Below, piece after piece: positions 34,201 to 55,940 of a stretch of 64,000 nt of DNA. The translations under genes were made by a program, and so were the position numbers. The stretch lies in contig JASJOG010000203.1 of the NCBI GenBank assembly GCA_030142905.1, positions 248,001-312,000 on the forward strand, written 5' to 3'. Under the pieces are notes generated by a model, which saw only the letters and a list, made by a program, of their open reading frames with translations, was not told where the DNA came from and did not search any database. Every line of letters starts with the position of its first letter. Within the stretch, counting starts at the first letter, position 1. Source of the DNA: Heliopora coerulea. Lineage: Eukaryota > Cnidaria > Anthozoa > Scleralcyonacea > Helioporidae.

Positions 34201-37200
34201 TCATTTGAATGTTAACAAACTGACCAGAGCTGCAAAGAAGAGCTCCAGAACTGTAAAAAATTTTAAATTCATTATATCGTAATTAGAATGTTATTCTATT
34301 CAAATGCGTAAAATTAATCTTTGTTAAGTGCCGTTGCGGAATTTTGCCATCTTTTTAAAGAAATGTAAAAAGATTTTCCATGATTGTAAACTCTTATATA
34401 AAAGAGTGTGATGTTGTGAAACTTTTGAAAACCTAAAAAACTCATGCATTGGGGTCGTACTTTTTGTCTCCCCATTCTCAAGTCTGGAATAAAGTAAAGC
34501 ATCTTTATTTATACTGGATAACCCTATCAGCTACCTAAGCTGTTCTTGCTAGAGGTCCAGTAAGAGCCACTCCTCATGGGTCCAGTGTTACTACAAGAGG
34601 AAACCGAAGTACCCGGAGAAAACCGGCGATGATTGGTTGAGTCAAACTGGAAAACACTCTTCTTACATGTGACCAAGGTATTTTTAATCAGACAACTGCA
34701 GGAGCCGGAATCAAACCCTAGTCACAGAGTGCACTATCACTGTGCTACCAGCATCCCCAACGCCACGCCACATGCAAATATTCACAAAATGATACCAGCT
34801 CTATAAAAAATATACATTACATATATCTGATGAACTTGCAATTTCTTATTACTCTAGATTCCGCTGACAGTACGAGCATCTCTGGAGCGAAGTTTGTCAA
34901 GTCCTACGAAATAGCTACAGTGAATTCCATTGGTCAGTTAAAAGTTTGGGACCTGAGGCAGAAGAGCAATAAACCAGTGAGGACAATGTTGCTGTAAGTC
35001 CTACATTCCCAAACTTTTTTTGCTCGAGGGCCAAAATACGAACTTGTCATGTTGAAGAGGAACATTCAATCTGATCTTCGTAACAGTAACATAAAAAAAG
35101 GTTGTAGATGTAACTTACTATTTAATGTGGCTAAGACGATGGTTTATTTTTAGAAAAATTGGCCATTATGACTGTGTGTGCTTTGTTATCCAAATAACCG
35201 CCCAGTAAATAGTGTAGGATAAGCCGTGGATTCAAGAGAGTTCAATGGTTGGCCAGAAAAGGCGTTCTTATTTCTCTTATATTCCTCGGGGGGATATTTT
35301 TATAGGTACACGTGCTGAGGAAATTTCACAATTAATTTACATTTTGAATCCCGTTCAAGTGAACTTCCAGTTGACTTTTCGCACTTTAAGTTAATCATGA
35401 AATGTCTTCATGTTACAGTACCCTCAGGATAATTCCGAAACAGAATCAAAAGTGCGCATTCACCTTTCTTTTCCGGGCTTTTTTTTTCTCATGTCGGTGA
35501 TACACCGCAGGCAATGCCGCAGGACTGTTGCAACGCTGTTACCAGCAATGAACTATTGGCAGTGTAACAATAGTAAAACACGATAGTTTGTCTTGCACGG
35601 TCATTCCTTCGACCATTGCTGTCCATCGCTAACACGTGAGAGCTAGCAGTCACGAACAGTTGCTACACTCCCTCGTTAGAGTTAATTACCGAGAACCGTG
35701 ACATTAAATTCAGCCTACTCTCAGCACAATTACAACACTAACCACAACATTGCACTTAAGAATTTTTACTTCTCTTAAAAGCACCAATGTGCAATACTAT
35801 CAAAGCTGCTGTTAGCAGGCATGGCATATCAATAGCGCCAACGTGCCTTTGAAACGTGAAGCAGAGGTGTAGTTGACGGTCCGGTAGGTTCGACAAGTAT
35901 CTATATCGATGGATCAATATCTATGAAGTAGTCTTGATGTCCTCTAGTCCTTCGAGACTATTTGTATGACGCTGTCCTCACAACATGGCAGCATGTAATT
36001 TCTTCTTGGGTAAGCCTAACAGACGTAAATTCTTGTACGTCGATTGGAACAGACTGACAAACCGTTAATGGTTAGTGCACCTCGAGCAAATGTTTTGCAC
36101 GGTACTAGGGTTGCCTTCCTGTCTCTCGCCTGGACTTATTAGAGTTGATCAACTCAGAAACAATTTCTAACAAAATTTTATGAATTGGTGTAGTTTAGAA
36201 GGGTAAGAATGTAAAGGTAATTAATAAGTTGGAGAAATACTCCACAGAGATCACTGGAAATGTAATTTTGAGCCCCTGAAACTAAAAAATTTTCTGGGGG
36301 AACATGCCCCCAGACCGCCGTTGATGGTTCGCAGCTTGACCATGGTAACCGGCGCCTTATGACCAGATAGTGTCAACAAAGAGTGTCGTCAAAACTAGCA
36401 TCACCCATGAGTAATAAAGAACACTAAAGCGGACTGTCGAAGCATTGGGTTGCGAAAAGTAACTTTTTAAATTACATTCAAAATATTCAAAGCCAGACTA
36501 GCGTTCACTACATTGGACATTTTTCGTGATTGCGTCGGGAAACTTGTTTATTTGGGACAAGCACATGATAAAGTAACTGGTAATTTTCATTCACAGCAAT
36601 CTAGTTGTCATACTCTCGATCACTGCGCCGGAGAAGCCTCGAGAATTTGGGGAGAAATATTAGAAGATCTGGTAAAAACTGATAAATGAAATCTTATCAA
36701 ACATATTTGTTTGTTTCCACAACAGAAGCGGAGATCGTGTTCCATTATTGTGCATCGATAAACATCCGACTCAACCACACTTGATTGCAACTGGTGGACA
36801 AGATGGAGTGTTGGGGCTGTGGGATATGAGACAAGAACGATATCCAGTGACTTTACTTGAGGCACACTCTGCTGAAGGTAATGTTATCAATAATTTCTTA
36901 AATCATATAGATATAAAATTATTTACGTACAGTGTACGTTGATTTTCATTGTTTGTTTTTTTTTGTCTTGTTTTGTTGGGGTTTTTTTTTTGTATTTTTT
37001 GTTGCTTTTGCTTATTCTGATGGCTTTACGTACCTTGACACTTACAGTTTTTTTAAAACTTTGCTCCACCAAACAATTAACCTGCTCGCAACCCAAGAAT
37101 TAGCGGCACGATGTCTTATTCCTGTGCAACAAAACTGTACGTGCCGAAAATTTCTGATCACATGTGGCCAAAAAGGTTCATTAAATTGAGACAGTTGGTT

Positions 37201-38466
37201 ATTGTAAATGGAATGTAGAAAAAATATAAGATGTTAGTTAAAGTCAACGTTCATACACTGAGAATACGAACTTTGGAAACTTAGAGACCTCATTTGGTAG
37301 AACGTCGATTAAATCTACTTTAGAAACTTAGATAACTCTTCAACTTCTACAATTACTGCATGTTGGAACATCATAATTTGTCAAATTTAGCAATTACTAT
37401 CCTAGAAAAACTATAGCGAAAATATTCATTTTGGAACTTTATATTCAAGTAAACACAAGAAAAGACTAAGTATTCGTGGTAATATTTCGATGGTAATAAT
37501 TTTCACACAGTACTTGTGCTAACATTTCGTAGTAATTTTCTCGTGTGTATATAGCGTTTTCAGCAAGTTTGATTATTTGGTTTGATAATGACCCTGCATT
37601 AGAGTCGAATGTTACCACGAATACCGTGTATTTTCTTGTGTTTACTTGACTGTCAAGTCCTAAGATGGATATTTTCGGTTTAGTTGTTCTACTTTATTTT
37701 CTTAAGTTGTCGGCTGGTTATGGCTTTCATCAATTAGTAATTTAACTTGTTATTAGACGTACTTTGGAAACGTAAAAGCTAGTATGAGCTCTAAAGATAA
37801 ATTCAAACTTTATTTGATCTGTCTTTGATGTCAGTGATCTGTGATTTTTTACTTGTCTAAATTTAAGTTTGTTATCTAATAATAACAGTCCTTTCACGTG
37901 ATACGACTGTCGCATACAATTATTCATCCTGGCGTATACAATGCTGTCTCGAGGCAACAATTCCTGCTGACGATTACCTGAATAATGTGGCAGTTACGTC
38001 CTGAACTCTGTAGTTACTTAGTCCCATGCATCAGAACGAACAATCTTACCGTATGTGATCATCGTATCGTCTAAATGGACATTAGTGGTTCTCGTTCTTT
38101 ACAGTTTGGGAAGTGATGTTTCACCACTCGAACCCAGACCACCTCTTTACATGCTCTCAAGACGGCTCCATCTGGCAGTGGAATGGTTCGAGTATGAAAA
38201 CATCCACCATGGACATAAGCCGGATATTGAACCCAAACCTTTTTGTTGCTGAAAACTTTTCCAGCAATGGCATTGGCACTGATGGCTCCCACAGTATAAC
38301 CACGCCCTGGTTGTCAGCTGATACCAGTAAACATAAAATAGAAACATTCTCATTGCTACCTTATAACCGCCTACCTGTGAACTCTCTTGACGTCTGCGCC
38401 CGCAATCTCGTGTGCGGCACTGATGGTGAAGCAGTGTATGTTCTAGAAGATTTGGATCTTGGGTGA
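31217..38466 (+). CDS. NUP43: Nucleoporin Nup43, seven exons
   Basis: Exons 31217-31330, 32321-32452, 32981-33058, 33299-33470, 34858-34993, 36726-36877 and 38105-38466 splice at GT-AG sites in consistent phase to a 381-residue protein (human Nup43 has 380). It is a WD40 beta-propeller of the Nup107-160 (Y) complex, which scaffolds the nuclear pore and joins kinetochores in mitosis. Recognisable blocks are VGQKVSKVRWSP near the N-terminus, SAGEDGTLVVLRMD, TVNSIGQLKVWDLRQ, HLIATGGQDGVLGLWDMRQ, HSNPDHLFTCSQDGSIWQW and the C-terminal SLDVCARNLVCGTDGEAVYV. The ATG at 31217 is chosen because translation upstream would overlap TMEM242. A 12-kb repeat array begins 217 bp after the stop codon, and a decayed copy of the last exon lies at 58390-58599. 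Confidence 0.96.
33603..33790. mobile_element. Small inverted-repeat element in NUP43 intron 4
   Basis: AACAAATAGAAATTACTTGA at the left is matched in inverse by ATTTTCTATTTGTT at the right, with a further paired block GTGTCTCTGTGCTGTGATA against TATCACAGTAGAAAGACAC. About 40 bp of imperfect terminal inverted repeat enclose ~110 bp, which is typical of a MITE. No clear target duplication. Confidence 0.5.
34560..34775 (-). mobile_element. tRNA-derived SINE in NUP43 intron 4
   Basis: On the minus strand a box A-like GGTAGCACAGTGATAGTGC is followed about 20 bp later by a box B-like GGGTTTGATTCCGG, the internal RNA polymerase III promoter of tRNA-derived SINEs. The downstream body contains CGCCGGTTTTCTCCGGGTAC. 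The tRNA part no longer folds as a working tRNA. Ends are approximate. Confidence 0.6.
35004..35035. mobile_element. hAT transposon terminus relic
   Basis: ATTCCCAAACTTTTTTTGCTCGAGGGCC matches the widespread hAT (Charlie/SPIN-like) terminal pattern of TTCCCAAACTTTTT followed by CGAGGGCC. It sits just inside NUP43 intron 5. No matching far end or transposase was found. Confidence 0.45.
36255..36330. repeat. Fragment of the repeat family seen at 15437-15942
   Basis: TTTTCTGGGGGAACATGCCC and the following CCAGACCGCC match, in inverse, the GGTCCGGGGGCATGCTCCC block near 15505-15525. It is a truncated piece inside NUP43 intron 5. Confidence 0.4.
37445..37649. mobile_element. 205-bp MITE-like element in NUP43 intron 6
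   Basis: TCAAGTAAACACAAGAAAA at the left is matched by the inverse TTTTCTTGTGTTTACTTGA at the right, and the next block (GTATTCGTGGTAA) is also inverted. The terminal repeats are about 45 bp and ~80% alike. A related copy starts at 57308. Confidence 0.7.
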
Positions 38467-40758
38467 TAAGTCAGACCTTTATAAATTCGTACTAATAACA
38501 ATATATTAAGTTCCACTTCTACCTCACGGCTATCTAGACACATTGTGTTCCAACAAGAGAATCAGTTTCCTATATGCCGTCCTAATAAGCAATGATAAGC
38601 TCTAACTGGATGTGTTGGATCTGTTGTATGACTCTAACCTGCTTTACATTTCTGCCTATTCCAGTAGGATGAAAAATAACAGGTAGTGTCTATTAAATAT
38701 AAACAACCGTGGTCAACTTTTCAACCGAAAAAAACTGTCCGTATTTTTCACTTTAACAATTTGTCCAAAAATTTTTCGTGTTGTCATAGTTATGTCATCA
38801 ACAGAACGGTTGCTGGAAGAATTCCTTGCCATTGTCAAAACATGTGTTGCGATTTTTCTCGGTAAAATCCTTCCCCGATATTCTATTACCCAATAAGCTG
38901 AGAAATGGTGTAAAGGATTAAATAATGGACATCGTAAAATTCTCCCACTGTAAATTCTACAGGTAAGGATAATTGACAGATTTTCTGTTTTTCCTGGTAT
39001 TTACCCTGATGTCAACCTGTGTCCGTGTCATGTTGCGTAGGCTTTAATGAAATTTATGGAAATTTTTAATGGATTGTGGTGAGAAAATTTGTTGACGTTG
39101 GCAAGAGATTTGTTGACTCGGACAGATTCGAATCGACATCTTCGCATCGAAGGAACATTGCTGTTATATTTTCCAGATACTGGCTCCATTTTACCTATAC
39201 TGCAATCCAAAGGTGTGAGTTCAAGCCCTGCTTTAGTCAACAAAAGAACGAGTGACAAAACAAAGAAAACAAAGCACAACGACAAAATTATTCGTGGATC
39301 AATTGGTTAGTCGTGGAATTTCCCGTGAGTGTTACATTTTCTAAAACCATGCGTTGAATTTCCCCATCAACGAATTTTGCGAATACGTTCTGCAACATTT
39401 AGAATGTCACTTTTTCTATTTTTTTCTTCAAGTTTGACGTAATGATGAACACCTTTTAACATTCGTCGATTATTACATGTTGAAACACGTACCGTGTGGT
39501 GTACTGTATGTTACATGCAGGGTTAGTTGAAGTATCGAGCATTAATTGGGTTAGCGTTTAGTGAAACTAATATATGATTTGAGTAAGCATTTCTTTCTTA
39601 TTTTCCAAAATTTTATTCGAGGTGATCAAATATGGGTGCGAAATTTTCCCGCCAGAATTAAACCGTCAGAAATTTTACAGCTGTGAAATATGTTGTGCAA
39701 ATTCACTAGTTAAAAATAACCAATTAATAAAAGTCAGTCTACATGAGGTAAGGTGTCGTGCCGTATACCCAAGACCAAACTAAAGTATTGTTAAGTTTCT
39801 GCTTGACGTCGTCATACTGATAATTATCTTTGGGAGAGAGGTATTTGTGACAAATATCTGATGTAGCAATTAGGCTTCGGCAGTTAGTGTTGTGTGTGGT
39901 ATTTGCGTAATACCAGCAGTTTATTACCAGTAATACCAGTAGTGTCTATTAAATATAAACAACCGTGGTCAACTTTTCAACGGAAAAAAGCTGTCCGTAT
40001 TTTTCACTTTAACAATTTGTCCAAAAATTTTTCGTGTTGTCATAGTTATGTCATCAACAGAACGGTTGCTGGAAGAATTCCTTGCCATTGTCAAAACATG
40101 TGTTGCGATTTTTCTCGGTAAAATCCTTCCCCGATATTCTATTACCCAATAAGCTGAGAAATGGTGTAAAGGATTAAATAATGGACATCGTAAAATTCTC
40201 CCACTGTAAATTCTACAGGTAAGGATAATTGACAGATTTTCTGTTTTTCCTGGTATTTACCCTGATGTCAACCTGTGTCCGTGTCATGTTGCGTAGGCTT
40301 TAATGAAATTTATGGAAATTTTTAATGGATTGTGGTGAGAAAATTTGTTGACGTTGGCAAGAGGTTTGTTGACTCGGACAGATTCGAATCGACATCTTCG
40401 CATCGAAGGAACATTGCTGTTATATTTTCCAGATACTGGCTCCATTTTACCTATACTGCAATCCAAAGGTGTGAGTTCAAGCCCTGCTTTAGTCAACAAA
40501 AGAACGAGTGACAAAACAAAGAAAACAAAGCACAACGACAAAATTATTCGTGGATCAATTGGTTAGTCGTGGAATTTCCCGTGAGTGTTACATTTTCTAA
40601 AACCATGCGTTGAATTTCCCCATCAACGAATTTTGCGAATACGTTCTGCAACATGTAGAATGTCACTTTTTCTATTTTTTCTTCAAGTTTGACGTAATGA
40701 TGAACACCTTTTAACATTCGTCGATTATTACATGTTGAAACACGTACCGTGTGGTGTA

Positions 40759-42119
40759 CAGTAGGTGCCAAAAGTATGAGTCCAGTCTCAATTTTTGCCA
40801 AAAATTCGAGAAAAGTATGAGTCCAGTTAGAACTGAGTGTGTATTTTTAATTTTGAACAATATTATCACTCTGTGTCACAATGTTTAATTTTACTTATAA
40901 AGGAGATAATTTACAGTAGTTTTTACGTGATTTCAGTATTTAGTGTGTCCTCCCTTAGCTTTTAAAATAGCTTGCACTCTTTTTGGCATGGATTTGACAA
41001 GTTTTTGAAGTGTTGATTGTTCGATGTTATTCCAACATTGAGAAAGTACATCCCATAGCCTGTCCTGGCTTGTGATTGCATGTTTCACTTTCTCTCTTTT
41101 TAAAAGATCCCATAAGTGTTCAATGGGATTAACGTCGGGAGACTGAGGTGGAAATGCCATTAGCTTTAATTCACCTTGGTTTTCTTTATTCTTTAAGTAA
41201 TTTGTGCACAAATTAGAACTGTGTTTAGGGTCATTATCTTGTAGTAAGGTAAATCCTCTCCCACATAACTTCTTGCCAGATGGTATAGCATGCCTTTGGA
41301 GAATTGAATGGTATTGCTCTTTTTTAAGAATGCCTTTTATCCGGTAAAGATCCCCGACACCATTAAAACTGAAACAACCCCAGACTTGGATGTTTCCACC
41401 ACCATGTTTCACTGTGGGTTTAATACACTGATTTAGTAATCTTTCACCAGGTCTTCGTCGCACATAAATGCGGCGATTGTTTCCAAAAATTTCAAATTTA
41501 GACTCATCGCTGAAAAGTACCTTTTTCCAGTCTTCTACACTATAGTTTTTGTATTTTTTTGCCCATAACAATCTCTTGCGCTTATTTTCAGGACGCAGCA
41601 ACAGTTTAGAAACTGCAACTCTTCCTTTCAGACCACTTCCAGCCAATCTCCTTCTTACTGTCGTTTTGCTGATTGTTTTCTCTCGTGTTGCGTTAATAGC
41701 GGATTGAATATTACCAGCAGTTGCTGTTCTATTACGCAAAGAAGTTATTTTTATGAACCGATCCTCTTGTGATGTAGTACACCTTGGTCTTCCAGACCTT
41801 GGTAGGTTGGAATAGGATTTAGTTTTTCTGAATCTTTCCACGGTTCGCTGCACAGCACCTTTCGACACTCCTATCTTTGCAGCAATTTGTCGCTGTGAGA
41901 AACCTTCGTTACTTAGAGCAACAATTTGTCCTCTAACTCCTTCACTTAACTCTTTAGCCATCCTTGACGTACATGCGTGTAGAGAATTAGATACATTTAT
42001 TTTGAAGTTATATATGGCATAATAATTAAAGGACAAAAGGTGGAGACAATTGCAGATCTCAATGCGCATGCTCAAGTAGCTAATGCAAGTTTATTTTTCA
42101 GAAGATATAATTTTCTATT
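40759..42119 (-). mobile_element. Tc1-like element, copy 1, lacking one terminal repeat
   Basis: The end next to the transposase stop begins TA|CAGTAGGTGCC, the standard Tc1/mariner terminus. The 17-mer AAAAGTATGAGTCCAGT occurs twice, 41 bp apart (40770 and 40811), like the direct repeats bound by Tc1 transposases. The opposite end should carry the inverse of this terminus before a TA, but the sequence passes straight into array unit DNA at 42120. So one inverted repeat is deleted, with 33 bp of target. It probably cannot move as a unit. Confidence 0.85.
40933..41961 (-). CDS. DD38E Tc1-family transposase, copy 1
   Basis: An intact 342-residue transposase. N-terminal helix-turn-helix regions (about residues 5-50, GFSQRQIAAKIGVSKGAVQR, and 85-120) flank a GRPR hook at 57-60; these bind the terminal repeats. 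The RNase H-like catalytic core has D152 (LFSDESKF), D242 (LLQDNDPKH) and E281 (NPIEHLW). The D242-E281 gap is 38 residues, four more than canonical DD34E Tc1, placing it with the DD38E (Intruder-type) group. The frame extends upstream to 42075, but MAKEL at 41961 matches the usual family start. No stops, frameshifts or missing catalytic residues. Its element has lost one end, so the protein could act only on intact relatives elsewhere. Confidence 0.9.
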   Translation of the reverse strand: MAKELSEGVRGQIVALSNEGFSQRQIAAKIGVSKGAVQRTVERFRKTKSYSNLPRSGRPRCTTSQEDRFIKITSLRNRTATAGNIQSAINATREKTISKTTVRRRLAGSGLKGRVAVSKLLLRPENKRKRLLWAKKYKNYSVEDWKKVLFSDESKFEIFGNNRRIYVRRRPGERLLNQCIKPTVKHGGGNIQVWGCFSFNGVGDLYRIKGILKKEQYHSILQRHAIPSGKKLCGRGFTLLQDNDPKHSSNLCTNYLKNKENQGELKLMAFPPQSPDVNPIEHLWDLLKREKVKHAITSQDRLWDVLSQCWNNIEQSTLQKLVKSMPKRVQAILKAKGGHTKY

Positions 42120-44597
42120 GAGCATTAATTGGGTTAGCGTTTAGTGAAACTAATATATGATTTGAGTAAGCATTTCTTTCTTATTTTCCAAAATTTTATT
42201 CGAGGTGATCAAATATGGGTGCGAAATTTTCCCGCCAGAATTAAACCGTCAGAAATTTTACAGCTGTGAAATATGTTGTGCAAATTCACTAGTTAAAAAT
42301 AACCAATTAATAAAAGTCAGTCTACATGAGGTAAGGTGTCGTGCCGTATACCCAAGACCAAACTAAAGTATTGTTAAGTTTCTGCTTGACGTCGTCATAC
42401 TGATAATTATCTTTGGGAGAGAGGTATTTGTGACAAATATCTGATGTAGCAATTAGGCTTCGGCAGTTAGTGTTGTGTGTGGTATTTGCGTAATACCAGC
42501 AGTTTATTACCAGTAATACCAGTAGTGTCTATTAAATATAAACAACCGTGGTCAACTTTTCAACGGAAAAAAGCTGTCCGTATTTTTCACTTTAACAATT
42601 TGTCCAAAAATTTTTCGTGTTGTCATAGTTATGTCATCAACAGAACGGTTGCTGGAAGAATTCCTTGCCATTGTCAAAACATGTGTTGCGATTTTTCTCG
42701 GTAAAATCCTTCCCCGATATTCTATTACCCAATAAGCTGAGAAATGGTGTAAAGGATTAAATAATGGACATCGTAAAATTCTCCCACTGTAAATTCTACA
42801 GGTAAGGATAATTGACAGATTTTCTGTTTTTCCTGGTATTTACCCTGATGTCAACCTGTGTCCGTGTCATGTTGCGTAGGCTTTAATGAAATTTATGGAA
42901 ATTTTTAATGGATTGTGGTGAGAAAATTTGTTGACGTTGGCAAGAGATTTGTTGACTCGGACAGATTCGAATCGACATCTTCGCATCGAAGGAACATTGC
43001 TGTTATATTTTCCAGATACTGGCTCCATTTTACCTATACTGCAATCCAAAGGTGTGAGTTCAAGCCCTGCTTTAGTCAACAAAAGAACGAGTGACAAAAC
43101 AAAGAAAACAAAGCACAACGACAAAATTATTCGTGGATCAATTGGTTAGTCGTGGAATTTCCCGTGAGTGTTACATTTTCTAAAACCATGCGTTGAATTT
43201 CCCCATCAACGAATTTTGCGAATACGTTCTGCAACATTTAGAATGTCACTTTTTCTATTTTTTTCTTCAAGTTTGACGTAATGATGAACACCTTTTAACA
43301 TTCGTCGATTATTACATGTTGAAACACGTACCGTGTGGTGTACTGTATGTTACATGCAGGGTTAGTTGAAGTATCGAGCATTAATTGGGTTAGCGTTTAG
43401 TGAAACTAATATATGATTTGAGTAAGCATTTCTTTCTTATTTTCCAAAATTTTATTCGAGGTGATCAAATATGGGTGCGAAATTTTCCCGCCAGAATTAA
43501 ACCGTCAGAAATTTTACAGCTGTGAAATATGTTGTGCAAATTCACTAGTTAAAAATAACCAATTAATAAAAGTCAGTCTACATGAGGTAAGGTGTCGTGC
43601 CGTATACCCAAGACCAAACTAAAGTATTGTTAAGTTTCTGCTTGACGTCGTCATACTGATAATTATCTTTGGGAGAGAGGTATTTGTGACAAATATCTGA
43701 TGTAGCAATTAGGCTTCGGCAGTTAGTGTTGTGTGTGGTATTTGCGTAATACCAGCAGTTTATTACCAGTAATACCAGTAGTGTCTATTAAATATAAACA
43801 ACCGTGGTCAACTTTTCAACGGAAAAAAGCTGTCCGTATTTTTCACTTTAACAATTTGTCCAAAAATTTTTCGTGTTGTCATAGTTATGTCATCAACAGA
43901 ACGGTTGCTGGAAGAATTCCTTGCCATTGTCAAAACATGTGTTGCGATTTTTCTCGGTAAAATCCTTCCCCGATATTCTATTACCCAATAAGCTGAGAAA
44001 TGGTGTAAAGGATTAAATAATGGACATCGTAAAATTCTCCCACTGTAAATTCTACAGGTAAGGATAATTGACAGATTTTCTGTTTTTCCTGGTATTTACC
44101 CTGATGTCAACCTGTGTCCGTGTCATGTTGCGTAGGCTTTAATGAAATTTATGGAAATTTTTAATGGATTGTGGTGAGAAAATTTGTTGACGTTGGCAAG
44201 AGGTTTGTTGACTCGGACAGATTCGAATCGACATCTTCGCATCGAAGGAACATTGCTGTTATATTTTCCAGATACTGGCTCCATTTTACCTATACTGCAA
44301 TCCAAAGGTGTGAGTTCAAGCCCTGCTTTAGTCAACAAAAGAACGAGTGACAAAACAAAGAAAACAAAGCACAACGACAAAATTATTCGTGGATCAATTG
44401 GTTAGTCGTGGAATTTCCCGTGAGTGTTACATTTTCTAAAACCATGCGTTGAATTTCCCCATCAACGAATTTTGCGAATACGTTCTGCAACATGTAGAAT
44501 GTCACTTTTTCTATTTTTTCTTCAAGTTTGACGTAATGATGAACACCTTTTAACATTCGTCGATTATTACATGTTGAAACACGTACCGTGTGGTGTA

Positions 44598-45958
44598 CAG
44601 TAGGTGCCAAAAGTATGAGTCCAGTCTCAATTTTTGCCAAAAATTCGAGAAAAGTATGAGTCCAGTTAGAACTGAGTGTGTATTTTTAATTTTGAACAAT
44701 ATTATCACTCTGTGTCACAATGTTTAATTTTACTTATAAAGGAGATAATTTACAGTAGTTTTTACGTGATTTCAGTATTTAGTGTGTCCTCCCTTAGCTT
44801 TTAAAATAGCTTGCACTCTTTTTGGCATGGATTTGACAAGTTTTTGAAGTGTTGATTGTTCGATGTTATTCCAACATTGAGAAAGTACATCCCATAGCCT
44901 GTCCTGGCTTGTGATTGCATGTTTCACTTTCTCTCTTTTTAAAAGATCCCATAAGTGTTCAATGGGATTAACGTCGGGAGACTGAGGTGGAAATGCCATT
45001 AGCTTTAATTCACCTTGGTTTTCTTTATTCTTTAAGTAATTTGTGCACAAATTAGAACTGTGTTTAGGGTCATTATCTTGTAGTAAGGTAAATCCTCTCC
45101 CACATAACTTCTTGCCAGATGGTATAGCATGCCTTTGGAGAATTGAATGGTATTGCTCTTTTTTAAGAATGCCTTTTATCCGGTAAAGATCCCCGACACC
45201 ATTAAAACTGAAACAACCCCAGACTTGGATGTTTCCACCACCATGTTTCACTGTGGGTTTAATACACTGATTTAGTAATCTTTCACCAGGTCTTCGTCGC
45301 ACATAAATGCGGCGATTGTTTCCAAAAATTTCAAATTTAGACTCATCGCTGAAAAGTACCTTTTTCCAGTCTTCTACACTATAGTTTTTGTATTTTTTTG
45401 CCCATAACAATCTCTTGCGCTTATTTTCAGGACGCAGCAACAGTTTAGAAACTGCAACTCTTCCTTTCAGACCACTTCCAGCCAATCTCCTTCTTACTGT
45501 CGTTTTGCTGATTGTTTTCTCTCGTGTTGCGTTAATAGCGGATTGAATATTACCAGCAGTTGCTGTTCTATTACGCAAAGAAGTTATTTTTATGAACCGA
45601 TCCTCTTGTGATGTAGTACACCTTGGTCTTCCAGACCTTGGTAGGTTGGAATAGGATTTAGTTTTTCTGAATCTTTCCACGGTTCGCTGCACAGCACCTT
45701 TCGACACTCCTATCTTTGCAGCAATTTGTCGCTGTGAGAAACCTTCGTTACTTAGAGCAACAATTTGTCCTCTAACTCCTTCACTTAACTCTTTAGCCAT
45801 CCTTGACGTACATGCGTGTAGAGAATTAGATACATTTATTTTGAAGTTATATATGGCATAATAATTAAAGGACAAAAGGTGGAGACAATTGCAGATCTCA
45901 ATGCGCATGCTCAAGTAGCTAATGCAAGTTTATTTTTCAGAAGATATAATTTTCTATT
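44598..45958 (-). mobile_element. Tc1-like element, copy 2, lacking one terminal repeat
   Basis: Displaced from the first copy by exactly 3839 bp, with the same CAGTAGGTGCC terminus, the same repeated AAAAGTATGAGTCCAGT and the same deletion junction. A shared breakpoint shows it arose by duplication of the array, not by a new insertion. Confidence 0.85.
44772..45800 (-). CDS. DD38E Tc1-family transposase, copy 2
   Basis: The 342-residue protein is identical to that at 40933-41961, with both DNA-binding regions and the D152-D242-E281 triad preserved. Identity over the whole protein, including synonymous sites as far as I compared, indicates very recent duplication or ongoing homogenisation, or an assembly duplication. 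Confidence 0.9.
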   Translation of the reverse strand: MAKELSEGVRGQIVALSNEGFSQRQIAAKIGVSKGAVQRTVERFRKTKSYSNLPRSGRPRCTTSQEDRFIKITSLRNRTATAGNIQSAINATREKTISKTTVRRRLAGSGLKGRVAVSKLLLRPENKRKRLLWAKKYKNYSVEDWKKVLFSDESKFEIFGNNRRIYVRRRPGERLLNQCIKPTVKHGGGNIQVWGCFSFNGVGDLYRIKGILKKEQYHSILQRHAIPSGKKLCGRGFTLLQDNDPKHSSNLCTNYLKNKENQGELKLMAFPPQSPDVNPIEHLWDLLKREKVKHAITSQDRLWDVLSQCWNNIEQSTLQKLVKSMPKRVQAILKAKGGHTKY

Positions 45959-48436
45959 GAGCATTAATTGGGTTAGCGTTTAGTGAAACTAATATATGAT
46001 TTGAGTAAGCATTTCTTTCTTATTTTCCAAAATTTTATTCGAGGTGATCAAATATGGGTGCGAAATTTTCCCGCCAGAATTAAACCGTCAGAAATTTTAC
46101 AGCTGTGAAATATGTTGTGCAAATTCACTAGTTAAAAATAACCAATTAATAAAAGTCAGTCTACATGAGGTAAGGTGTCGTGCCGTATACCCAAGACCAA
46201 ACTAAAGTATTGTTAAGTTTCTGCTTGACGTCGTCATACTGATAATTATCTTTGGGAGAGAGGTATTTGTGACAAATATCTGATGTAGCAATTAGGCTTC
46301 GGCAGTTAGTGTTGTGTGTGGTATTTGCGTAATACCAGCAGTTTATTACCAGTAATACCAGTAGTGTCTATTAAATATAAACAACCGTGGTCAACTTTTC
46401 AACGGAAAAAAGCTGTCCGTATTTTTCACTTTAACAATTTGTCCAAAAATTTTTCGTGTTGTCATAGTTATGTCATCAACAGAACGGTTGCTGGAAGAAT
46501 TCCTTGCCATTGTCAAAACATGTGTTGCGATTTTTCTCGGTAAAATCCTTCCCCGATATTCTATTACCCAATAAGCTGAGAAATGGTGTAAAGGATTAAA
46601 TAATGGACATCGTAAAATTCTCCCACTGTAAATTCTACAGGTAAGGATAATTGACAGATTTTCTGTTTTTCCTGGTATTTACCCTGATGTCAACCTGTGT
46701 CCGTGTCATGTTGCGTAGGCTTTAATGAAATTTATGGAAATTTTTAATGGATTGTGGTGAGAAAATTTGTTGACGTTGGCAAGAGATTTGTTGACTCGGA
46801 CAGATTCGAATCGACATCTTCGCATCGAAGGAACATTGCTGTTATATTTTCCAGATACTGGCTCCATTTTACCTATACTGCAATCCAAAGGTGTGAGTTC
46901 AAGCCCTGCTTTAGTCAACAAAAGAACGAGTGACAAAACAAAGAAAACAAAGCACAACGACAAAATTATTCGTGGATCAATTGGTTAGTCGTGGAATTTC
47001 CCGTGAGTGTTACATTTTCTAAAACCATGCGTTGAATTTCCCCATCAACGAATTTTGCGAATACGTTCTGCAACATTTAGAATGTCACTTTTTCTATTTT
47101 TTTCTTCAAGTTTGACGTAATGATGAACACCTTTTAACATTCGTCGATTATTACATGTTGAAACACGTACCGTGTGGTGTACTGTATGTTACATGCAGGG
47201 TTAGTTGAAGTATCGAGCATTAATTGGGTTAGCGTTTAGTGAAACTAATATATGATTTGAGTAAGCATTTCTTTCTTATTTTCCAAAATTTTATTCGAGG
47301 TGATCAAATATGGGTGCGAAATTTTCCCGCCAGAATTAAACCGTCAGAAATTTTACAGCTGTGAAATATGTTGTGCAAATTCACTAGTTAAAAATAACCA
47401 ATTAATAAAAGTCAGTCTACATGAGGTAAGGTGTCGTGCCGTATACCCAAGACCAAACTAAAGTATTGTTAAGTTTCTGCTTGACGTCGTCATACTGATA
47501 ATTATCTTTGGGAGAGAGGTATTTGTGACAAATATCTGATGTAGCAATTAGGCTTCGGCAGTTAGTGTTGTGTGTGGTATTTGCGTAATACCAGCAGTTT
47601 ATTACCAGTAATACCAGTAGTGTCTATTAAATATAAACAACCGTGGTCAACTTTTCAACGGAAAAAAGCTGTCCGTATTTTTCACTTTAACAATTTGTCC
47701 AAAAATTTTTCGTGTTGTCATAGTTATGTCATCAACAGAACGGTTGCTGGAAGAATTCCTTGCCATTGTCAAAACATGTGTTGCGATTTTTCTCGGTAAA
47801 ATCCTTCCCCGATATTCTATTACCCAATAAGCTGAGAAATGGTGTAAAGGATTAAATAATGGACATCGTAAAATTCTCCCACTGTAAATTCTACAGGTAA
47901 GGATAATTGACAGATTTTCTGTTTTTCCTGGTATTTACCCTGATGTCAACCTGTGTCCGTGTCATGTTGCGTAGGCTTTAATGAAATTTATGGAAATTTT
48001 TAATGGATTGTGGTGAGAAAATTTGTTGACGTTGGCAAGAGGTTTGTTGACTCGGACAGATTCGAATCGACATCTTCGCATCGAAGGAACATTGCTGTTA
48101 TATTTTCCAGATACTGGCTCCATTTTACCTATACTGCAATCCAAAGGTGTGAGTTCAAGCCCTGCTTTAGTCAACAAAAGAACGAGTGACAAAACAAAGA
48201 AAACAAAGCACAACGACAAAATTATTCGTGGATCAATTGGTTAGTCGTGGAATTTCCCGTGAGTGTTACATTTTCTAAAACCATGCGTTGAATTTCCCCA
48301 TCAACGAATTTTGCGAATACGTTCTGCAACATGTAGAATGTCACTTTTTCTATTTTTTCTTCAAGTTTGACGTAATGATGAACACCTTTTAACATTCGTC
48401 GATTATTACATGTTGAAACACGTACCGTGTGGTGTA

Positions 48437-49797
48437 CAGTAGGTGCCAAAAGTATGAGTCCAGTCTCAATTTTTGCCAAAAATTCGAGAAAAGTATGAGT
48501 CCAGTTAGAACTGAGTGTGTATTTTTAATTTTGAACAATATTATCACTCTGTGTCACAATGTTTAATTTTACTTATAAAGGAGATAATTTACAGTAGTTT
48601 TTACGTGATTTCAGTATTTAGTGTGTCCTCCCTTAGCTTTTAAAATAGCTTGCACTCTTTTTGGCATGGATTTGACAAGTTTTTGAAGTGTTGATTGTTC
48701 GATGTTATTCCAACATTGAGAAAGTACATCCCATAGCCTGTCCTGGCTTGTGATTGCATGTTTCACTTTCTCTCTTTTTAAAAGATCCCATAAGTGTTCA
48801 ATGGGATTAACGTCGGGAGACTGAGGTGGAAATGCCATTAGCTTTAATTCACCTTGGTTTTCTTTATTCTTTAAGTAATTTGTGCACAAATTAGAACTGT
48901 GTTTAGGGTCATTATCTTGTAGTAAGGTAAATCCTCTCCCACATAACTTCTTGCCAGATGGTATAGCATGCCTTTGGAGAATTGAATGGTATTGCTCTTT
49001 TTTAAGAATGCCTTTTATCCGGTAAAGATCCCCGACACCATTAAAACTGAAACAACCCCAGACTTGGATGTTTCCACCACCATGTTTCACTGTGGGTTTA
49101 ATACACTGATTTAGTAATCTTTCACCAGGTCTTCGTCGCACATAAATGCGGCGATTGTTTCCAAAAATTTCAAATTTAGACTCATCGCTGAAAAGTACCT
49201 TTTTCCAGTCTTCTACACTATAGTTTTTGTATTTTTTTGCCCATAACAATCTCTTGCGCTTATTTTCAGGACGCAGCAACAGTTTAGAAACTGCAACTCT
49301 TCCTTTCAGACCACTTCCAGCCAATCTCCTTCTTACTGTCGTTTTGCTGATTGTTTTCTCTCGTGTTGCGTTAATAGCGGATTGAATATTACCAGCAGTT
49401 GCTGTTCTATTACGCAAAGAAGTTATTTTTATGAACCGATCCTCTTGTGATGTAGTACACCTTGGTCTTCCAGACCTTGGTAGGTTGGAATAGGATTTAG
49501 TTTTTCTGAATCTTTCCACGGTTCGCTGCACAGCACCTTTCGACACTCCTATCTTTGCAGCAATTTGTCGCTGTGAGAAACCTTCGTTACTTAGAGCAAC
49601 AATTTGTCCTCTAACTCCTTCACTTAACTCTTTAGCCATCCTTGACGTACATGCGTGTAGAGAATTAGATACATTTATTTTGAAGTTATATATGGCATAA
49701 TAATTAAAGGACAAAAGGTGGAGACAATTGCAGATCTCAATGCGCATGCTCAAGTAGCTAATGCAAGTTTATTTTTCAGAAGATATAATTTTCTATT
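48437..49797 (-). mobile_element. Tc1-like element, copy 3, lacking one terminal repeat
   Basis: Third copy, again displaced by 3839 bp and ending at the same truncated junction into unit DNA (CTATT|GAGCATTAATTGG). It is part of the third dimer of the array. Confidence 0.85.
48611..49639 (-). CDS. DD38E Tc1-family transposase, copy 3
   Basis: Identical 342-residue product to the other two copies, uninterrupted and with the complete catalytic triad. No promoter can be judged for any copy. The 5' flank is array unit DNA because the element end upstream of the transposase is the one that was lost. Confidence 0.9.
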   Translation of the reverse strand: MAKELSEGVRGQIVALSNEGFSQRQIAAKIGVSKGAVQRTVERFRKTKSYSNLPRSGRPRCTTSQEDRFIKITSLRNRTATAGNIQSAINATREKTISKTTVRRRLAGSGLKGRVAVSKLLLRPENKRKRLLWAKKYKNYSVEDWKKVLFSDESKFEIFGNNRRIYVRRRPGERLLNQCIKPTVKHGGGNIQVWGCFSFNGVGDLYRIKGILKKEQYHSILQRHAIPSGKKLCGRGFTLLQDNDPKHSSNLCTNYLKNKENQGELKLMAFPPQSPDVNPIEHLWDLLKREKVKHAITSQDRLWDVLSQCWNNIEQSTLQKLVKSMPKRVQAILKAKGGHTKY

Positions 49798-50720
49798 GAG
49801 CATTAATTGGGTTAGCGTTTAGTGAAACTAATATATGATTTGAGTAAGCATTTCTTTCTTATTTTCCAAAATTTTATTCGAGGTGATCAAATATGGGTGC
49901 GAAATTTTCCCGCCAGAATTAAACCGTCAGAAATTTTACAGCTGTGAAATATGTTGTGCAAATTCACTAGTTAAAAATAACCAATTAATAAAAGTCAGTC
50001 TACATGAGGTAAGGTGTCGTGCCGTATACCCAAGACCAAACTAAAGTATTGTTAAGTTTCTGCTTGACGTCGTCATACTGATAATTATCTTTGGGAGAGA
50101 GGTATTTGTGACAAATATCTGATGTAGCAATTAGGCTTCGGCAGTTAGTGTTGTGTGTGGTATTTGCGTAATACCAGCAGTTTATTACCAGTAATACCAG
50201 TAGTGTCTATTAAATATAAACAACCGTGGTCAACTTTTCAACGGAAAAAAGCTGTCCGTATTTTTCACTTTAACAATTTGTCCAAAAATTTTTCGTGTTG
50301 TCATAGTTATGTCATCAACAGAACGGTTGCTGGAAGAATTCCTTGCCATTGTCAAAACATGTGTTGCGATTTTTCTCGGTAAAATCCTTCCCCGATATTC
50401 TATTACCCAATAAGCTGAGAAATGGTGTAAAGGATTAAATAATGGACATCGTAAAATTCTCCCACTGTAAATTCTACAGGTAAGGATAATTGACAGATTT
50501 TCTGTTTTTCCTGGTATTTACCCTGATGTCAACCTGTGTCCGTGTCATGTTGCGTAGGCTTTAATGAAATTTATGGAAATTTTTAATGGATTGTGGTGAG
50601 AAAATTTGTTGACGTTGGCAAGAGATTTGTTGACTCGGACAGATTCGAATCGACATCTTCGCATCGAAGGAACATTGCTGTTATATTTTCCATCGCTCTA
50701 AGACTGCACCGGAAAAGTAA

Positions 50721-50834
50721 GCAGAGATGCAGATTGAACATGTTAAGAGTGTCTCTACTTCCACTACCCGACGAAGACTGAGAGAGGCTGGTCCCAACGG
50801 CCGCAAACCAAGTTACTATCTGCACCACAAGTGA
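50721..50834 (+). pseudogene. Tc1/mariner transposase fragment at the array edge
   Basis: One frame reads SVSTSTTRRRLREAGPNGRKPS and then stops, matching the second helix-turn-helix of Tc1-type transposases (consensus around TVRRRLxEAGLxGR). It is only ~37 codons and unrelated in detail to the DD38E copies. It lies 29 bp beyond the right border of the array. Confidence 0.5.
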
Positions 50835-50854
50835 GCAGTTCTTTTTGACCGCCA

Positions 50855-50855
<1 letters not shown>

Positions 50856-50894
<39 letters not shown>

Positions 50895-51029
50895 CATATA
50901 TGTATGTTTGTATGTATGTATTGTATGTATGTATGTATTGTATGTATGTATGTATTGTATGTACGTATGTATGTATTGTACGTATGTATGTATTGTATGT
51001 ATGTATGTATTGCATGTATGTATTATGTA
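50856..51029. repeat. Microsatellite: (TA)n then TGTA-rich repeat
   Basis: About 18 TA units at 50856-50891 are followed by TATGTATGTATGTATTG-type repeats to about 51029. The long Tyr/Ile/His-rich minus frame through here is produced by the repeat. Confidence 0.9.
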
Positions 51030-51796
51030 ATGAGGCTTAGGCATAGGCATAAGTATAGATACAGGTAATGGTTCAGTTATAAGTAGAGGTATATGAGGTA
51101 TGTGTTTGTGAGTTGAGTGTAGTACTGTTTGCAAAGGTCTACCACGAACATTTAAAATAACCGCTGTCCTTCACCATGTGAAGGTCATGGAGTAAATCTG
51201 CAACTGGGAGCAGGCCGTACGCTCATAGTGTGTATTTAAACCGTGTACCTATAAGTTTTGTAACCTTTCCAGATTTTCTTTCTGAATTGAACTGATTTTC
51301 TGCCGGTATTCTTTCTCTTTCTCCCAGTTTTCCGCTTTCAGTTCAGTCAACTAAATGTACATTTAGGATAATGGGAAACTCGCAAAATTCTCACTGACAA
51401 CTGTTGATGAAAGGTAGATCCATGGAATACAGCTAAAGTGACTGCACCTGTAGATGGCCAGTGCTCCAAGAACTTGACGAGTGTCGTATACATATACAAA
51501 ACGTTCCACATTACAGTGGAGCGTGTCACTTCGGAAATTGTAAAACAAATTCCCATATCGGCATTTTAAAAGTCTAATACATTAAAACACTAGACAAAAC
51601 AAGTCAACGTAATATTTCGAAGTGCTTTTGGTCGTATTTCTTCTCTCACTAAAATTGTGATGCATCTGGGTCAAAGATTTTATTAAATGTTTGCGCAGCT
51701 CATCAGAGAACTCTGGTATGTTTGTTGAAATCTTGAGCGGGTGGAATTTCTGTAATTTGATTGGCAGCAGCAATGGGCGAATAACCCCAGCTCTTA
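51030..51796. other. Intergenic DNA without recognisable gene
   Basis: No domain, RNA gene or repeat was identified. The frames at 51347-51556 overlap one another on the same strand and look like chance openings. Confidence 0.35.
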
Positions 51797-51953
51797 CGGT
51801 ATATAATCGCAGCTGGTAAATAACATAATTATATAGTCCCAGCCAGTTCATAATATATATAATCCCAGCCAATAAATAAGATACAATGCCAGCCGGTATG
51901 TACCGTATTTAATTCCAGCCGGTAAATAACATAATCACAGCCAGGAAATAAGA
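51797..51953. repeat. Degenerate minisatellite, AATCCCAGCCGGTAAATAA-like units
   Basis: Six or so units of about 25-30 bp share variants of TAATCCCAGCCGGTAAATAACATA. They are imperfect in length and sequence. Confidence 0.6.
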
Positions 51954-52084
51954 GAATGATATACATTCATAAAATTATATTCATTTATAGAATTATATTA
52001 ATTCCGCACTTTACAATGGTTTCTCAGTTTCGCAATTTCATAAACTATTATTCCTTTCAGTTAAGAATTGCCTTTTTTTATTTA

Positions 52085-52610
52085 ATAACTGTATTTACGA
52101 ACAAGTTGATGGGGTGGCCATTGGCTCTCCCCTAGGTCCACTTTTTGCCAACACTTTATCTTTTCATGAACGTAATTGGACAACCATTTGTCCGCCACAG
52201 TTCAAACCACTGATGATTGTTTTGCTGTTTTTCGTTCTCCTCGCCATGTTCGACCTTTTTAGGTATACCTAAACTCACAACATCGCAACATCTTCACCCG
52301 CGAGTTGCAGAATAATTAAACTCTTCCCTTTCTGGACGTCTTGATCGATCGCTCGGACGGCCGGTTTTCAACTGTTTGCCGAAAGCCCAATTTCACTGGT
52401 TTATTAAAAATGTTCTACAGTTTTATTCCCATATCCCATAAACGTGGTCTTGTTTATACTCTGCTTAATCGATATTTCAAAATTAGCTCTTCATACTACC
52501 TCTTTCATTCCGAGTTACTTAATCCTAACCCTTTGGCTACTGAATTGTTTTTGGGAAATTCAGTTTGCGTTCCAGTAGAACCACACAAAATACCATAATT
52601 CATGTTTTAT
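52085..52610 (+). pseudogene. Penelope-like element reverse transcriptase relic
   Basis: The translation YEQVDGVAIGSPLGPLFANT near 52095-52155 matches a hallmark reverse transcriptase motif of Penelope-like retroelements. After frame changes, 52341-52598 reads FSTVCRKPNFTG, then SFIPISHKRGLVYTLLNRYF and ISSSYYLFHSE, which match the region following the RT core. Stops and frameshifts separate the blocks, and the catalytic YVDD box is not intact (only a DDCFAVF remnant is seen). It is dead, with no visible endonuclease region. Confidence 0.75.
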
Positions 52611-53022
52611 TTGTCATAACAAGTTATTCAAGGTACCAAAATGAAGCTAATAGCCTTTTCTATAAGGTGAACGTGCTGTTATGGCTACTATTTGCTGTAA
52701 TTGCTAGGAGGGGGAGTTGTACAGTTATTTCAACTTTGTCAATTACGATGAAAGAATAGCAAAATTAAGTAGTTTTGCTATATACAATCCAAGTTATTGC
52801 ATAATCTCCAAGTAAAAAGGGATCAAAATGTAAAGAAAGATCCCTTCTTTTAAAATATTATATCAAATTTATACATTTGAGTAAATGTTACCGGATAATT
52901 ATAAGAACTATGACACCTGTCCTAACAGTAAAATTACTGGACGAAGATAGGGGAAGATGCCAATGCCATTTTGATGGAAATGGTTTTAAAAAGTCTTAGT
53001 AATTAATGTCTGGTTTGCTACA

Positions 53023-53247
53023 TTAGTACTTGAACTTTGTGTGGAATTTGGAAAAACAATTGTTTTTGCACAGGTGCTTGTCACACTTGGCACAATAGGT
53101 CTGAGTCTTTGTTCCTCTGTGAGCAGCATTTGGCGTTTTTTGGTATGCACACACCACACACCTTCTTACTTCGGATGTTTCACGAAAGTGTTTCTCTTTG
53201 AGTCTTAAATCATCAGAGACTGATCTTATTGCTGGACCAGGAGTCTT
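53023..53247 (-). pseudogene. piggyBac-type transposase C-terminal zinc-finger relic
   Basis: A minus-strand frame of ~74 codons ends ...RRCVVCAYQKTPNAAHRG, then a TYCAKCDKHLCKNNCFSKFH block and a stop. The spacing of C-x2-C, C-x2-C, C-x3-C and H residues, preceded by LKEKHF, is the cysteine-rich domain at the C-terminus of piggyBac (PGBD) transposases, which binds element ends. The catalytic domain is absent upstream, where a stop interrupts the frame, and no TTAA-flanked ends were found. The zinc-finger itself is remarkably intact. Confidence 0.75.
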
Positions 53248-53940
53248 CTAGTCATTTAGTCATGATTATTTAGCTTCTTATCAGTCATTAAAAGTTTTAC
53301 TTATAAATTATCAAAGCAACTCTCTAATATATTCACCTCATCTAAAAATTTTCAAGGTTTTTAACAGCTCAAAATCTGTTTTTTATTGTCGATGAAATTC
53401 ACTGAACAACATCAGAATAACATCTTAAATGAAGAAGTAAACTAAACAAAATGTTTTACATTTTTTAGAGAAAAGATTTTTTATTTGTTCTAACATGTGT
53501 TTGTCCGGTTTGTCGGTCGTAGACTTCTCGTGGTTGTCGTTAGAAATATGATCCTATATCACGGAATATTGAAATTTCCTGATATTGATTTGTGGATTAA
53601 TGGAAACCCATGTGAGAAGCCGTAGTGCGTACTGTATCAAAACAGACAACAGAGTCTGCGAATTTTTGAACGGTTCAACACCGAAGGAGGACCGTTGACG
53701 TTTTTGCCATATTTCATCCATTTCAACTTGGGCACTCGTACTGATTTCATGTGATAAACAAATCACACAATACTTGCATTCGAAATTTCTGCTCTAGCCG
53801 ATAACCATAGTCACATGAACGTATTTTTTAACTACGAGACCGAGATAGAAGGCCAGACATAGCGAGCAAACTAAGATTAAGAATGTACGAACTATAGAAA
53901 AACAAATCGAACAAGCAATTTACTTCGTTTTGTTTTCTAG
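53248..53940. other. Intergenic DNA before the TPR exon
   Basis: No gene recognised. The minus-strand frame at 53554-53766 has no known domain. Any upstream exon of the TPR gene must lie in this stretch or further left; I could not identify it. Confidence 0.35.
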
Positions 53941-55288
53941 GCTTTCGTGTTCATCTAAGGCAGCACGGTGCTAATGCGAAAACTGTGAAAAAAAAAGATG
54001 AGCAACCTGAAGAAGAAGCGGCAAACACGGAAAGTGCAATTGGAGACACACAGCATAATATGGGACACCCCATTGAAGCTGTTCAATCTGAGCAAATAGC
54101 ACTTAACATTAGTTTGAAGCGATATCGTAAACAACATGCAACAAAGGCTGACAGTTACCATTCGTTTGGAGTCACACAACACGACGTAAAACACTACGTT
54201 TCAGCTCTTCAATCATACCAGAAAACACTTAACATCAGGTTAAAGCTCTATGGTGAACAACATGCAACAAAGGCTGACAGTTACGATTCGATTGGAGTTA
54301 CACAACACGAGATGAAAGACTACGTTTCTGCTCTTCAGTCATCCCAGCAAGCACTTAACATCAGGTTAAAGCTACATGGTGAACAACATGCAACAACGGC
54401 TGACAGTTACGATTCGATTGGAGTCACACAACACAAGATGAAAGACTACGTTTCTGCTCTTCAATCATACCAGCAAGCACTTAACATCAGGTTAAAAGCT
54501 ATATGGTAAACAACATGCAACAACGGCTGACAGTTACGATTCAATTGGAGTCACACAACGCGAGAAGAAAGACTACGTTTCAGCTTTACAATCATTCGAG
54601 CGAGCACTTAACATTAAGTTAAAGCTATGTGGTGAACAACATGCAACAACGGCTGACAGTTACCATTCGACTGGAGTCACACAACACAAGATGAAAGACT
54701 ACGTTTCAGCTCTTCAATCCAAACAGCAAGCACTTAACATTAGGTTGAAACTATATGGTGAACAACATGCAACAACGGCTGACAGTTACGATTCAATTGG
54801 AGTCACAAAACGCGAGAAGAAAGACTACGTTTCACCTTTACAATCATTCGAGCGAGCACTTAACATCAGGTTAAAGCTATTTGGTGAACAACATGCAACA
54901 ACGGCTGACAGTTACGATTCGATTGGAGTCACACAACACGAGATGAAAGACTACGTTTCTGCTCTTCAATCACACCAGCAAGCACTTAACATCAGGTTAA
55001 AAGCTATATGGTGAACAACATGCAACAATGGCTGACAGTTACGATTCAATTGGAGTCACACAACGCGAGAAGAAAGACTACGTTTCAGCTTTACAATCAT
55101 TCGAGCGAGCACTTAACATTAAGTTAAAGCTATGTGGTGAACAACATGCAACAACGGCTGACAGTTACGATTCGACTGGAGTCACACAACACGAGATGAA
55201 AGACGACGTTTCAGCTCTTCAGTTCAAACAGCTAGCAATTAACATAATCAAAGACTGCAAAAACTTGATTGAAGATGAAAAAATTAAG
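53941..55288 (+). CDS. TPR repeat exon (kinesin-light-chain type), frameshifted
   Basis: After an acceptor (TTTTCTAG) the exon encodes a short acidic lead (KKKDEQPEEEAANTESA) and then about ten 42-residue repeats of the form DSYDSIGVTQHEMKDYVSAL + QSYQQALNIRLKLYGEQHAT. This is the 42-residue TPR of the kinesin light chain/nephrocystin-3 class, which builds a superhelical protein-binding surface. The 126-bp repeats are nearly identical. Two extra A bases (TTAAAAGC instead of TTAAAGC, near 54494 and 54998) break the frame into 53985-54509, 54510-55014 and 55015-55288; each shift leads to a stop (AIW). The shifts are exactly 504 bp, four repeats, apart. The donor is AAG|GTTTGT. There is no start codon here, so upstream exons are missing. 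It may be a pseudogene, or the extra A could be a base-calling error. Confidence 0.75.
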
Positions 55289-55407
55289 GTTTGTGTTATT
55301 TGGTACTTGATCTACACATTCATTCAGTCGTTTGTTTGCTGATAACGTAGCAAAAGCAACTTCTTGTTGTGAACGAGTAAGACATGTAATTTTAATTATT
55401 TCCACAG

Positions 55408-55464
55408 ACGATCCTGGCGACGTTGGCCAATCGAAAAACGCAGAAGAAGAAAAAGAAGAAAAAG
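55408..55464 (+). CDS. Candidate small exon after the TPR exon
   Basis: 57 nt between a good acceptor (TTTCCACAG) and donor (AAAG|GTACAG). In phase 1 it reads DPGDVGQSKNAEEEKEEK and joins smoothly to the exon at 60920-60994. In phase 0, which the TPR exon end actually offers, it reads a Lys-rich run that meets a stop in the next exon. So another indel in the TPR exon is likely if these belong together. Confidence 0.4.
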
Positions 55465-55639
55465 GTACAGTGCCTAAAACACTTTAAAACTTACGGGATA
55501 AAATATGATGTTTTATTTTCATTGCATTTCTAATGATATTTCAAACAGGCTTTGAAGGCTTTGAGGTCTGAAAACTGATATATCAAGTAGGAAAAGTTTT
55601 AGGGTAATATAATGCCAAAAAAGGAGAAAAGAAAAAACT

Positions 55640-55940
55640 ATGACTTTTCGAGGAAAATCCTTATTACCTCTGAACGTTTTTCACGTTGTTCTGAACTGCT
55701 TACCCAACTCTCCAACTTTGCTATCTCCAATGTTGGCTAATATTTTCATGACCCACCATTTCAACCCTCCCATCTTCCACCGATACGTAGGTGACTGCTT
55801 TTCCAAGAAAACTAAAAGCAAGTCAGAGATCCACTCCTCGAACTCTTAAACAATCACTACCTGCAGATAAATTTCACTGTGATCGAGAAGACGGATCATT
55901 TCCTAAAAATAGAATTTGGTTATGACAACGATCAACTGCA
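55640..55940 (+). pseudogene. Second Penelope-like reverse transcriptase relic
   Basis: SPMLANIFMTHHF and FHRYVGDCFSK match the LANIFM and (Y)RYVDDTF motifs of Penelope-like RTs. The catalytic DD is changed to GD. After a stop, another frame continues with LQINFTVIEKTDHFLKIEFG, the block expected next. It lies in what would be an intron of the TPR gene, in the same orientation as the relic at 52085. Confidence 0.65.

What the first reader, a model, noticed from the sequence alone, without database searches (positions are those of the whole stretch)
38683..50692. Higher-order satellite built from a transposon-bearing and a transposon-free unit
The array alternates a 1256-bp unit with a 2583-bp unit and repeats the pair at exactly 3839 bp three times. 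This is the dimeric higher-order organisation usually described for centromeric satellites, but here the unit is large and includes a protein-coding transposon. Fixed differences between the two unit types recur in every dimer, so the dimer, not the monomer, was the thing amplified. The identity of dimers implies recent growth or strong homogenisation.
Basis: seen in the sequence. Interest (0 to 1): 0.75.

Follow-up and report, generated by a model that had tools for sequence, protein, structure and literature searches.

The report
Local tandem array carrying truncated transposon
In what looks like a soft-coral genome a stretch of ordinary DNA was copied in tandem, one copy picked up a jumping gene that then lost one end, and the pair was multiplied to three identical copies; it looks like a small duplication at one place rather than a centromere-type satellite.

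Summary
Region 38683-50692 is R[spE R spT R]x3: seven copies of a 493-bp segment R, separated by spacers that alternate between 763 bp (empty) and 2090 bp (with a Tc1-type transposon). The pair repeats at 3839 bp with no mismatch over 8119 compared bases, and the same fixed changes separate the two unit types in every pair, so the pair was the amplified thing. "Satellite" is not supported: in the 430-Mb genome (octocoral by POU3 similarity) the unit was found only here, apart from a 94-bp match at 77%, in mid-contig between genes. The transposon belongs to a dispersed, little-diverged Tc1 family (mostly 1410-1416 bp, TA flanks). This copy is 1357 bp: the last 55 bp, its right inverted repeat, are gone with about 29 bp of host DNA, so it should be immobile although its 342-aa frame is open. 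The short unit keeps the empty insertion site. Best account: tandem duplication, Tc1 insertion in one copy, end deletion, then recent growth of the pair by recombination between R copies or reintegration of a circle. Assembly duplication cannot be excluded without reads. Precedents exist (Bari1 clusters; mariner in ant satellite).

The parts
38683..50692 (+). Whole array, R[spE R spT R]x3, 12010 bp, 3.13 copies of a 3839-bp pair
38683..39175 (+). First R copy (493 bp), left edge of array; two private substitutions at 38726 and 38734
39176..39938 (+). Empty spacer spE (763 bp), first of three identical copies
39533..42115 (+). Transposon-bearing unit L1 (2583 bp); identical copies L2 43372-45954 and L3 47211-49793
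42116..43371 (+). Transposon-free unit S2 (1256 bp); identical copy S3 45955-47210; holds the uninterrupted insertion site near 43340
40759..42115 (-). Tc1-type transposon, 1357 bp, left inverted repeat present after a TA, last 55 bp on the right missing; identical copies 44598-45954 and 48437-49793
40770..40827 (+). Two 17-bp direct repeats (40770-40786, 40811-40827) in the left end, as in IR/DR-type Tc1 elements (label recalled); no counterpart on the other strand of the window with up to 3 mismatches
40933..41961 (-). Open transposase frame, 342 aa from the start MAKELSE; identical copies in L2 and L3
50200..50692 (+). Last R copy (493 bp), right edge of array
38113..38466 (+). Left neighbour: C-terminal part of a Nup43-like gene
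53985..55342 (+). Right neighbour: TPR-coding tandem repeats (126-bp period) with frame breaks

Best explanation
It is a tandem duplication at one locus, not a satellite family. Inferred order: (1) a 1256-bp stretch of otherwise single-copy DNA was duplicated in tandem, leaving 493 bp (R) repeated at both edges; (2) a Tc1-type transposon of a dispersed family inserted at a TA in one spacer, while the other copy kept the empty site; (3) one deletion took the last 55 bp of the transposon and about 29 bp of host DNA, which should leave it immobile; (4) unequal crossing-over between R copies one pair (3839 bp) apart, or reintegration of a circle of that size by crossover at R, raised the pair to three copies so recently that none has changed apart from two bases at the left edge. 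Shown: array grammar, identity, empty site, truncated end, dispersed transposon family, a single place found for the unit. Inferred: the order of (1) to (3), the single deletion, immobility and the recombination route.
For: Exact pair identity and shared fixed differences. Unit found only here, 7 places plus a 94-bp match at 77%. Transposon found at 37 other places among the 40 candidates scored (of 225): 23 at 86-98%, 2 of these covering under half of it, and 14 at 72-74%. Of the 17 other copies I read, 16 showed a right terminal repeat, and 13 of 13 with both ends resolved have TA on both sides; 11 of those 13 are 1410-1416 bp, the other two 1373 and 1425. No right repeat in the window copies with up to 3 mismatches. 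S units carry the uninterrupted site. The outer edges share the 493-bp R.
Against: The transposon copy has 18 private substitutions in 1357 bp (1.3%), the most of 14 compared, while the S and L sequence around it differs by only about 0.3%; this needs either homogenisation of the flanks after insertion or insertion of an already diverged copy. The two substitutions near the left edge fit several histories. No related species' locus could be read, so the ancestral state is unknown. The right flank could not be searched in the genome. No reads, so the copy number could be an assembly error.
Confidence: 0.7

Rival explanations
1. Assembly duplication: the true locus has one pair (or another number), and the assembler repeated it.
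For: Three copies identical to the base over 3839 bp apart from two edge bases; no reads or coverage were available.
Against: The two unit types inside each pair differ consistently and the left edge copy has private changes, so an S-L-S order is probably real sequence. Assemblers more often collapse than expand such repeats (own knowledge). The contig is 590 kb in a 769-contig assembly, which suggests long reads (inference).
Confidence: 0.2
2. A true higher-order satellite, of which this is an outlying short block, with the main arrays missing from the assembly.
For: Pair-wise higher-order structure and homogeneity.
Against: No other unit found in 430 Mb except a 94-bp match at 77%; genic neighbourhood; only about 6.4 monomers. 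Collapsed or unassembled arrays are not excluded, and the search gives lower bounds.
Confidence: 0.07
3. A terminal-repeat retroelement (R as LTR, shared between tandem copies).
For: R-spacer-R grammar with R at both edges; if R is taken to start at TGTC and end at CCA it has TG...CA ends.
Against: No second copy of R found in the genome; by eye no target duplication at the edges and no clear primer site or purine tract; no frame of 100 aa or more in the empty spacer.
Confidence: 0.03

Closest known systems
Bari1 tandem clusters of Drosophila melanogaster (Tc1-mariner superfamily)
   Same: Head-to-tail tandem copies that include a Tc1-type element, each with the same deletion at one end; thought recent; a rolling-circle-like route from a circular transposon has been proposed (PMC8834629 passages; PMC9659126 passages).
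   Different: There the transposon itself is the unit, about 80 copies (a second cluster has six) in heterochromatin, and the deletion is two bases; here it sits in every second unit of host DNA, three copies, between genes, and 55 bases are lost.
Mariner-like element inside satellite DNA of Messor ants
   Same: A Tc1/mariner element lies inside a tandemly repeated host sequence (table row in PMC9659126).
   Different: There a satellite; here one locus was found. The original paper was not read.
Macrosatellites such as D4Z4 and DXZ4
   Same: Tandem units of about 3 kb at a fixed place (starts of abstracts in the listing); that some carry an open frame is own knowledge.
   Different: Far fewer copies here, and the frame is a transposase from an insertion.
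Higher-order repeats of alpha satellite (own knowledge; start of one abstract)
   Same: A multi-monomer block is the unit of amplification.
   Different: Monomer length, copy number, location and abundance all differ.

Membership tests
Satellite DNA with higher-order repeats | Multimer is more alike between repeats than the monomers within it | tested here: met
   0 differences in 8119 bp between pairs against fixed differences plus the insert between S and L
Satellite DNA with higher-order repeats | Long arrays, or abundance at several or heterochromatic places | tested here: not met
   Only this locus, about 12 kb, found in the own genome, plus a 94-bp match at 77%; unassembled DNA not testable
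Satellite DNA with higher-order repeats | Centromeric location or CENP-A | not testable with these tools
   Context is genic; no chromatin data
Tc1-type transposons (Tc1/mariner) | HTH plus DDE transposase with catalytic D, D, E | tested here: met
   Pfam PF01498 and PF13358; aligned to Sleeping Beauty SB100X with the three acidic residues present and a four-residue insertion between the second D and E; which residues are catalytic is recalled
Tc1-type transposons (Tc1/mariner) | Terminal inverted repeats and TA target duplication in the family | tested here: met
   16 of 17 other copies read show the right repeat (L031 not resolved); 13 of 13 with both ends resolved have TA on both sides
Tc1-type transposons (Tc1/mariner) | Both terminal repeats present in this copy (needed for mobility) | tested here: not met
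   Right repeat absent
LTR or terminal-repeat retroelement | Dispersed copies and target site duplication | tested here: not met
   No other R copy found; no duplication seen at the edges by eye

The most novel reading that the evidence does not exclude
Three identical, open, immobile transposase genes were amplified because they supply (or silence, through RNA) the mobile Tc1 copies elsewhere in the genome: a standing source of transposase in trans, carried by a locally amplified host segment. The private changes in the frame are 6 synonymous and 5 replacing, fewer replacing than neutral expectation (P 0.02 to 0.07 by transition bias), but they could date from before the insertion.
Probability: 0.05. 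Interest if true: 0.55.

Novelty: new member of a known kind. Interest (0 to 1): 0.27.

Why it matters
It may freeze an early stage of tandem-repeat birth: single-copy DNA, a repeated edge, a transposon that marks one copy, and pair-wise growth, all readable in one place. It would serve as a test case for how higher-order arrays start, if reads confirm the copy number. Otherwise it is an ordinary local duplication.

Tried and rejected
An 85-aa frame inside the unit gave one candidate and no protein relative at E 0.01. No Rfam family matched 38000-43400 at E up to 5. The LTR reading of R was considered and dropped. Viral contigs held no exact match to one 30-base word of the unit and no confirmed relative of the transposase (8 stretches matched a pattern, none confirmed). 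The flanks I compared (30001-38682 and 50693-60000) have no significant similarity to the pair (best E 0.34). The 94-bp match elsewhere (L008) showed only weak short matches beyond it. A genome search with the right flank (50693-51900) did not complete, so whether a dispersed repeat starts at the right edge is unknown. Paper searches were made; no octocoral case of this kind stood out in those listings, which is not proof that none is in print. PMC7004042 was seen as an outline and abstract only and is not used as evidence.

Full report
What is there. The array runs from 38683 to 50692 (12010 bp). Five whole units and two partial ones alternate: S partial 38683-39532, L1 39533-42115, S2 42116-43371, L2 43372-45954, S3 45955-47210, L3 47211-49793, S partial 49794-50692. 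L1, L2 and L3 are identical, and so are S2 and S3. At lag 3839 identity is exact for 8119 bases. Written by its outer edges the array is R[spE R spT R]x3, with R 493 bp, spE 763 bp and spT 2090 bp; the three spE are identical and the three spT are identical; among the seven R, R2, R4 and R6 share one fixed difference, R1 has two private ones, and R3, R5 and R7 are the same.

S against L. Apart from the insert, the fixed differences are two substitutions and a one-base length difference in about 1225 shared bases, plus one base next to the right junction of the insert. If the pairs were as old as the S/L split, zero differences in 8119 bases would have a probability of about 2e-9 (a simple Poisson estimate that counts three differences). 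So the pair was amplified later than the split, or it is homogenised as a pair.

The transposon. It begins with CAGTAGGTGCC directly after a TA (40758/40759) and holds two 17-bp direct repeats in its left end. Its transposase has Pfam HTH_Tnp_Tc3_2 and DDE_3 domains, aligns with Sleeping Beauty SB100X at 8.5e-46, and is open for 342 aa from MAKELSE. Of the six closest proteins (72-84% identity), P0001, P0002 and P0006 start at the same place. In the own genome the search scored 40 of 225 candidates: 3 are the window copies, 23 others match at 86-98% (2 of them over less than half) and 14 at 72-74%. I read 17 of the others (L024-L040): 16 showed the right terminal repeat, and one (L031) was not resolved; 13 of 13 with both ends resolved have TA on both sides; 11 of these 13 are 1410-1416 bp and two are 1373 and 1425 bp; 5 of the 17 have a 342-aa frame. 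The window copy stops at 1357 bp, then host sequence resumes; the S unit shows the uninterrupted site, from which about 29 bp are missing in L. One deletion over the end of the transposon would explain this. That the copy is immobile is inference from the missing end.

Age. Among 14 copies compared (the window copy and L024-L036, that is 13 of the 17 read; gaps not counted) the other copies are on average 98.6% alike, and the window copy has 18 private substitutions, the most (others 2 to 17). In the frame 6 are silent and 5 replacing; under neutral mutation 71-77% would be replacing, P 0.02-0.07 depending on the transition bias. This hints at constraint, most simply while the lineage was still mobile. 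The flanks differ far less between S and L, so either they were homogenised or the copy was already diverged when it came in. I cannot separate the two.

Where it is. The window is G000:C117:248001-312000; the genome has 429.8 Mb in 769 contigs and this contig 589754 bp. The POU3-type protein at 1190-2407 is 77% identical to a protein of Dendronephthya gigantea and 72% to one of Xenia, with unnamed ones at about 90%. The 1256-bp unit matched 7 places, all in this array, and one 94-bp stretch at 77%; that search skips very common words and gives lower bounds. The left neighbour is the C-terminal part of a Nup43-like gene, the right neighbour TPR-coding repeats. The left flank also holds a dispersed repeat about 1 kb from the array.

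Mechanism. Both edges carry R, and R copies one pair apart are the homology needed for exchange in steps of 3839 bp. Unequal crossing-over or break repair on R gives the array; so does insertion of a 3839-bp circle, rolled several times, by one crossover at R. I prefer the first as simpler, without proof. The non-integer copy number (3.13) fits both.

Known relatives. Reviews describe the Bari1 clusters of Drosophila, tandem copies of a Tc1-type element with a uniform two-base end deletion and a proposed rolling-circle origin (PMC8834629 and PMC9659126, passages), and a mariner element within ant satellite DNA (PMC9659126 table row). Tandem gene duplication is described as pervasive in stony corals (PMC10236652, passages). 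The present array is another case of tandem growth that includes a transposon, unusual in its neat alternation, not a new kind.

Noticed in passing
10538-12592: Inverted repeat with 829-bp arms, 98.6% identical, 397 bp apart, between two POU genes; possibly a fold-back or long-inverted-repeat DNA element.
   Followed up: partly
54098-55245: TPR-coding repeat array, period 126 bp, with more shared 24-base words at lags 253 and 505 than at 126, so it too seems to have higher-order structure; the reading frame breaks at least twice in the array.
   Followed up: partly
58375-58596: Second copy of the Nup43-like C-terminal part, 78% identical in protein, with an in-frame stop: probably a pseudogene copy about 20 kb downstream.
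   Followed up: partly
37403-37727: Dispersed repeat: most of the 111 matches listed for 37400-38682 in the genome fall here (40 of 610 candidates scored); inverted parts suggest a fold-back or MITE type; another copy near 57250-57422.
   Followed up: partly
60274-60710: Palindrome of 437 bp, about 85% self-complementary.
   Followed up: no
1190-2407 and 13545-14141: Two POU homeodomain genes, each POU and homeodomain pair in one open frame, 11 kb apart.
   Followed up: no
26653-27105: Tandem repeat of 132 bp, 3.5 copies.
   Followed up: no
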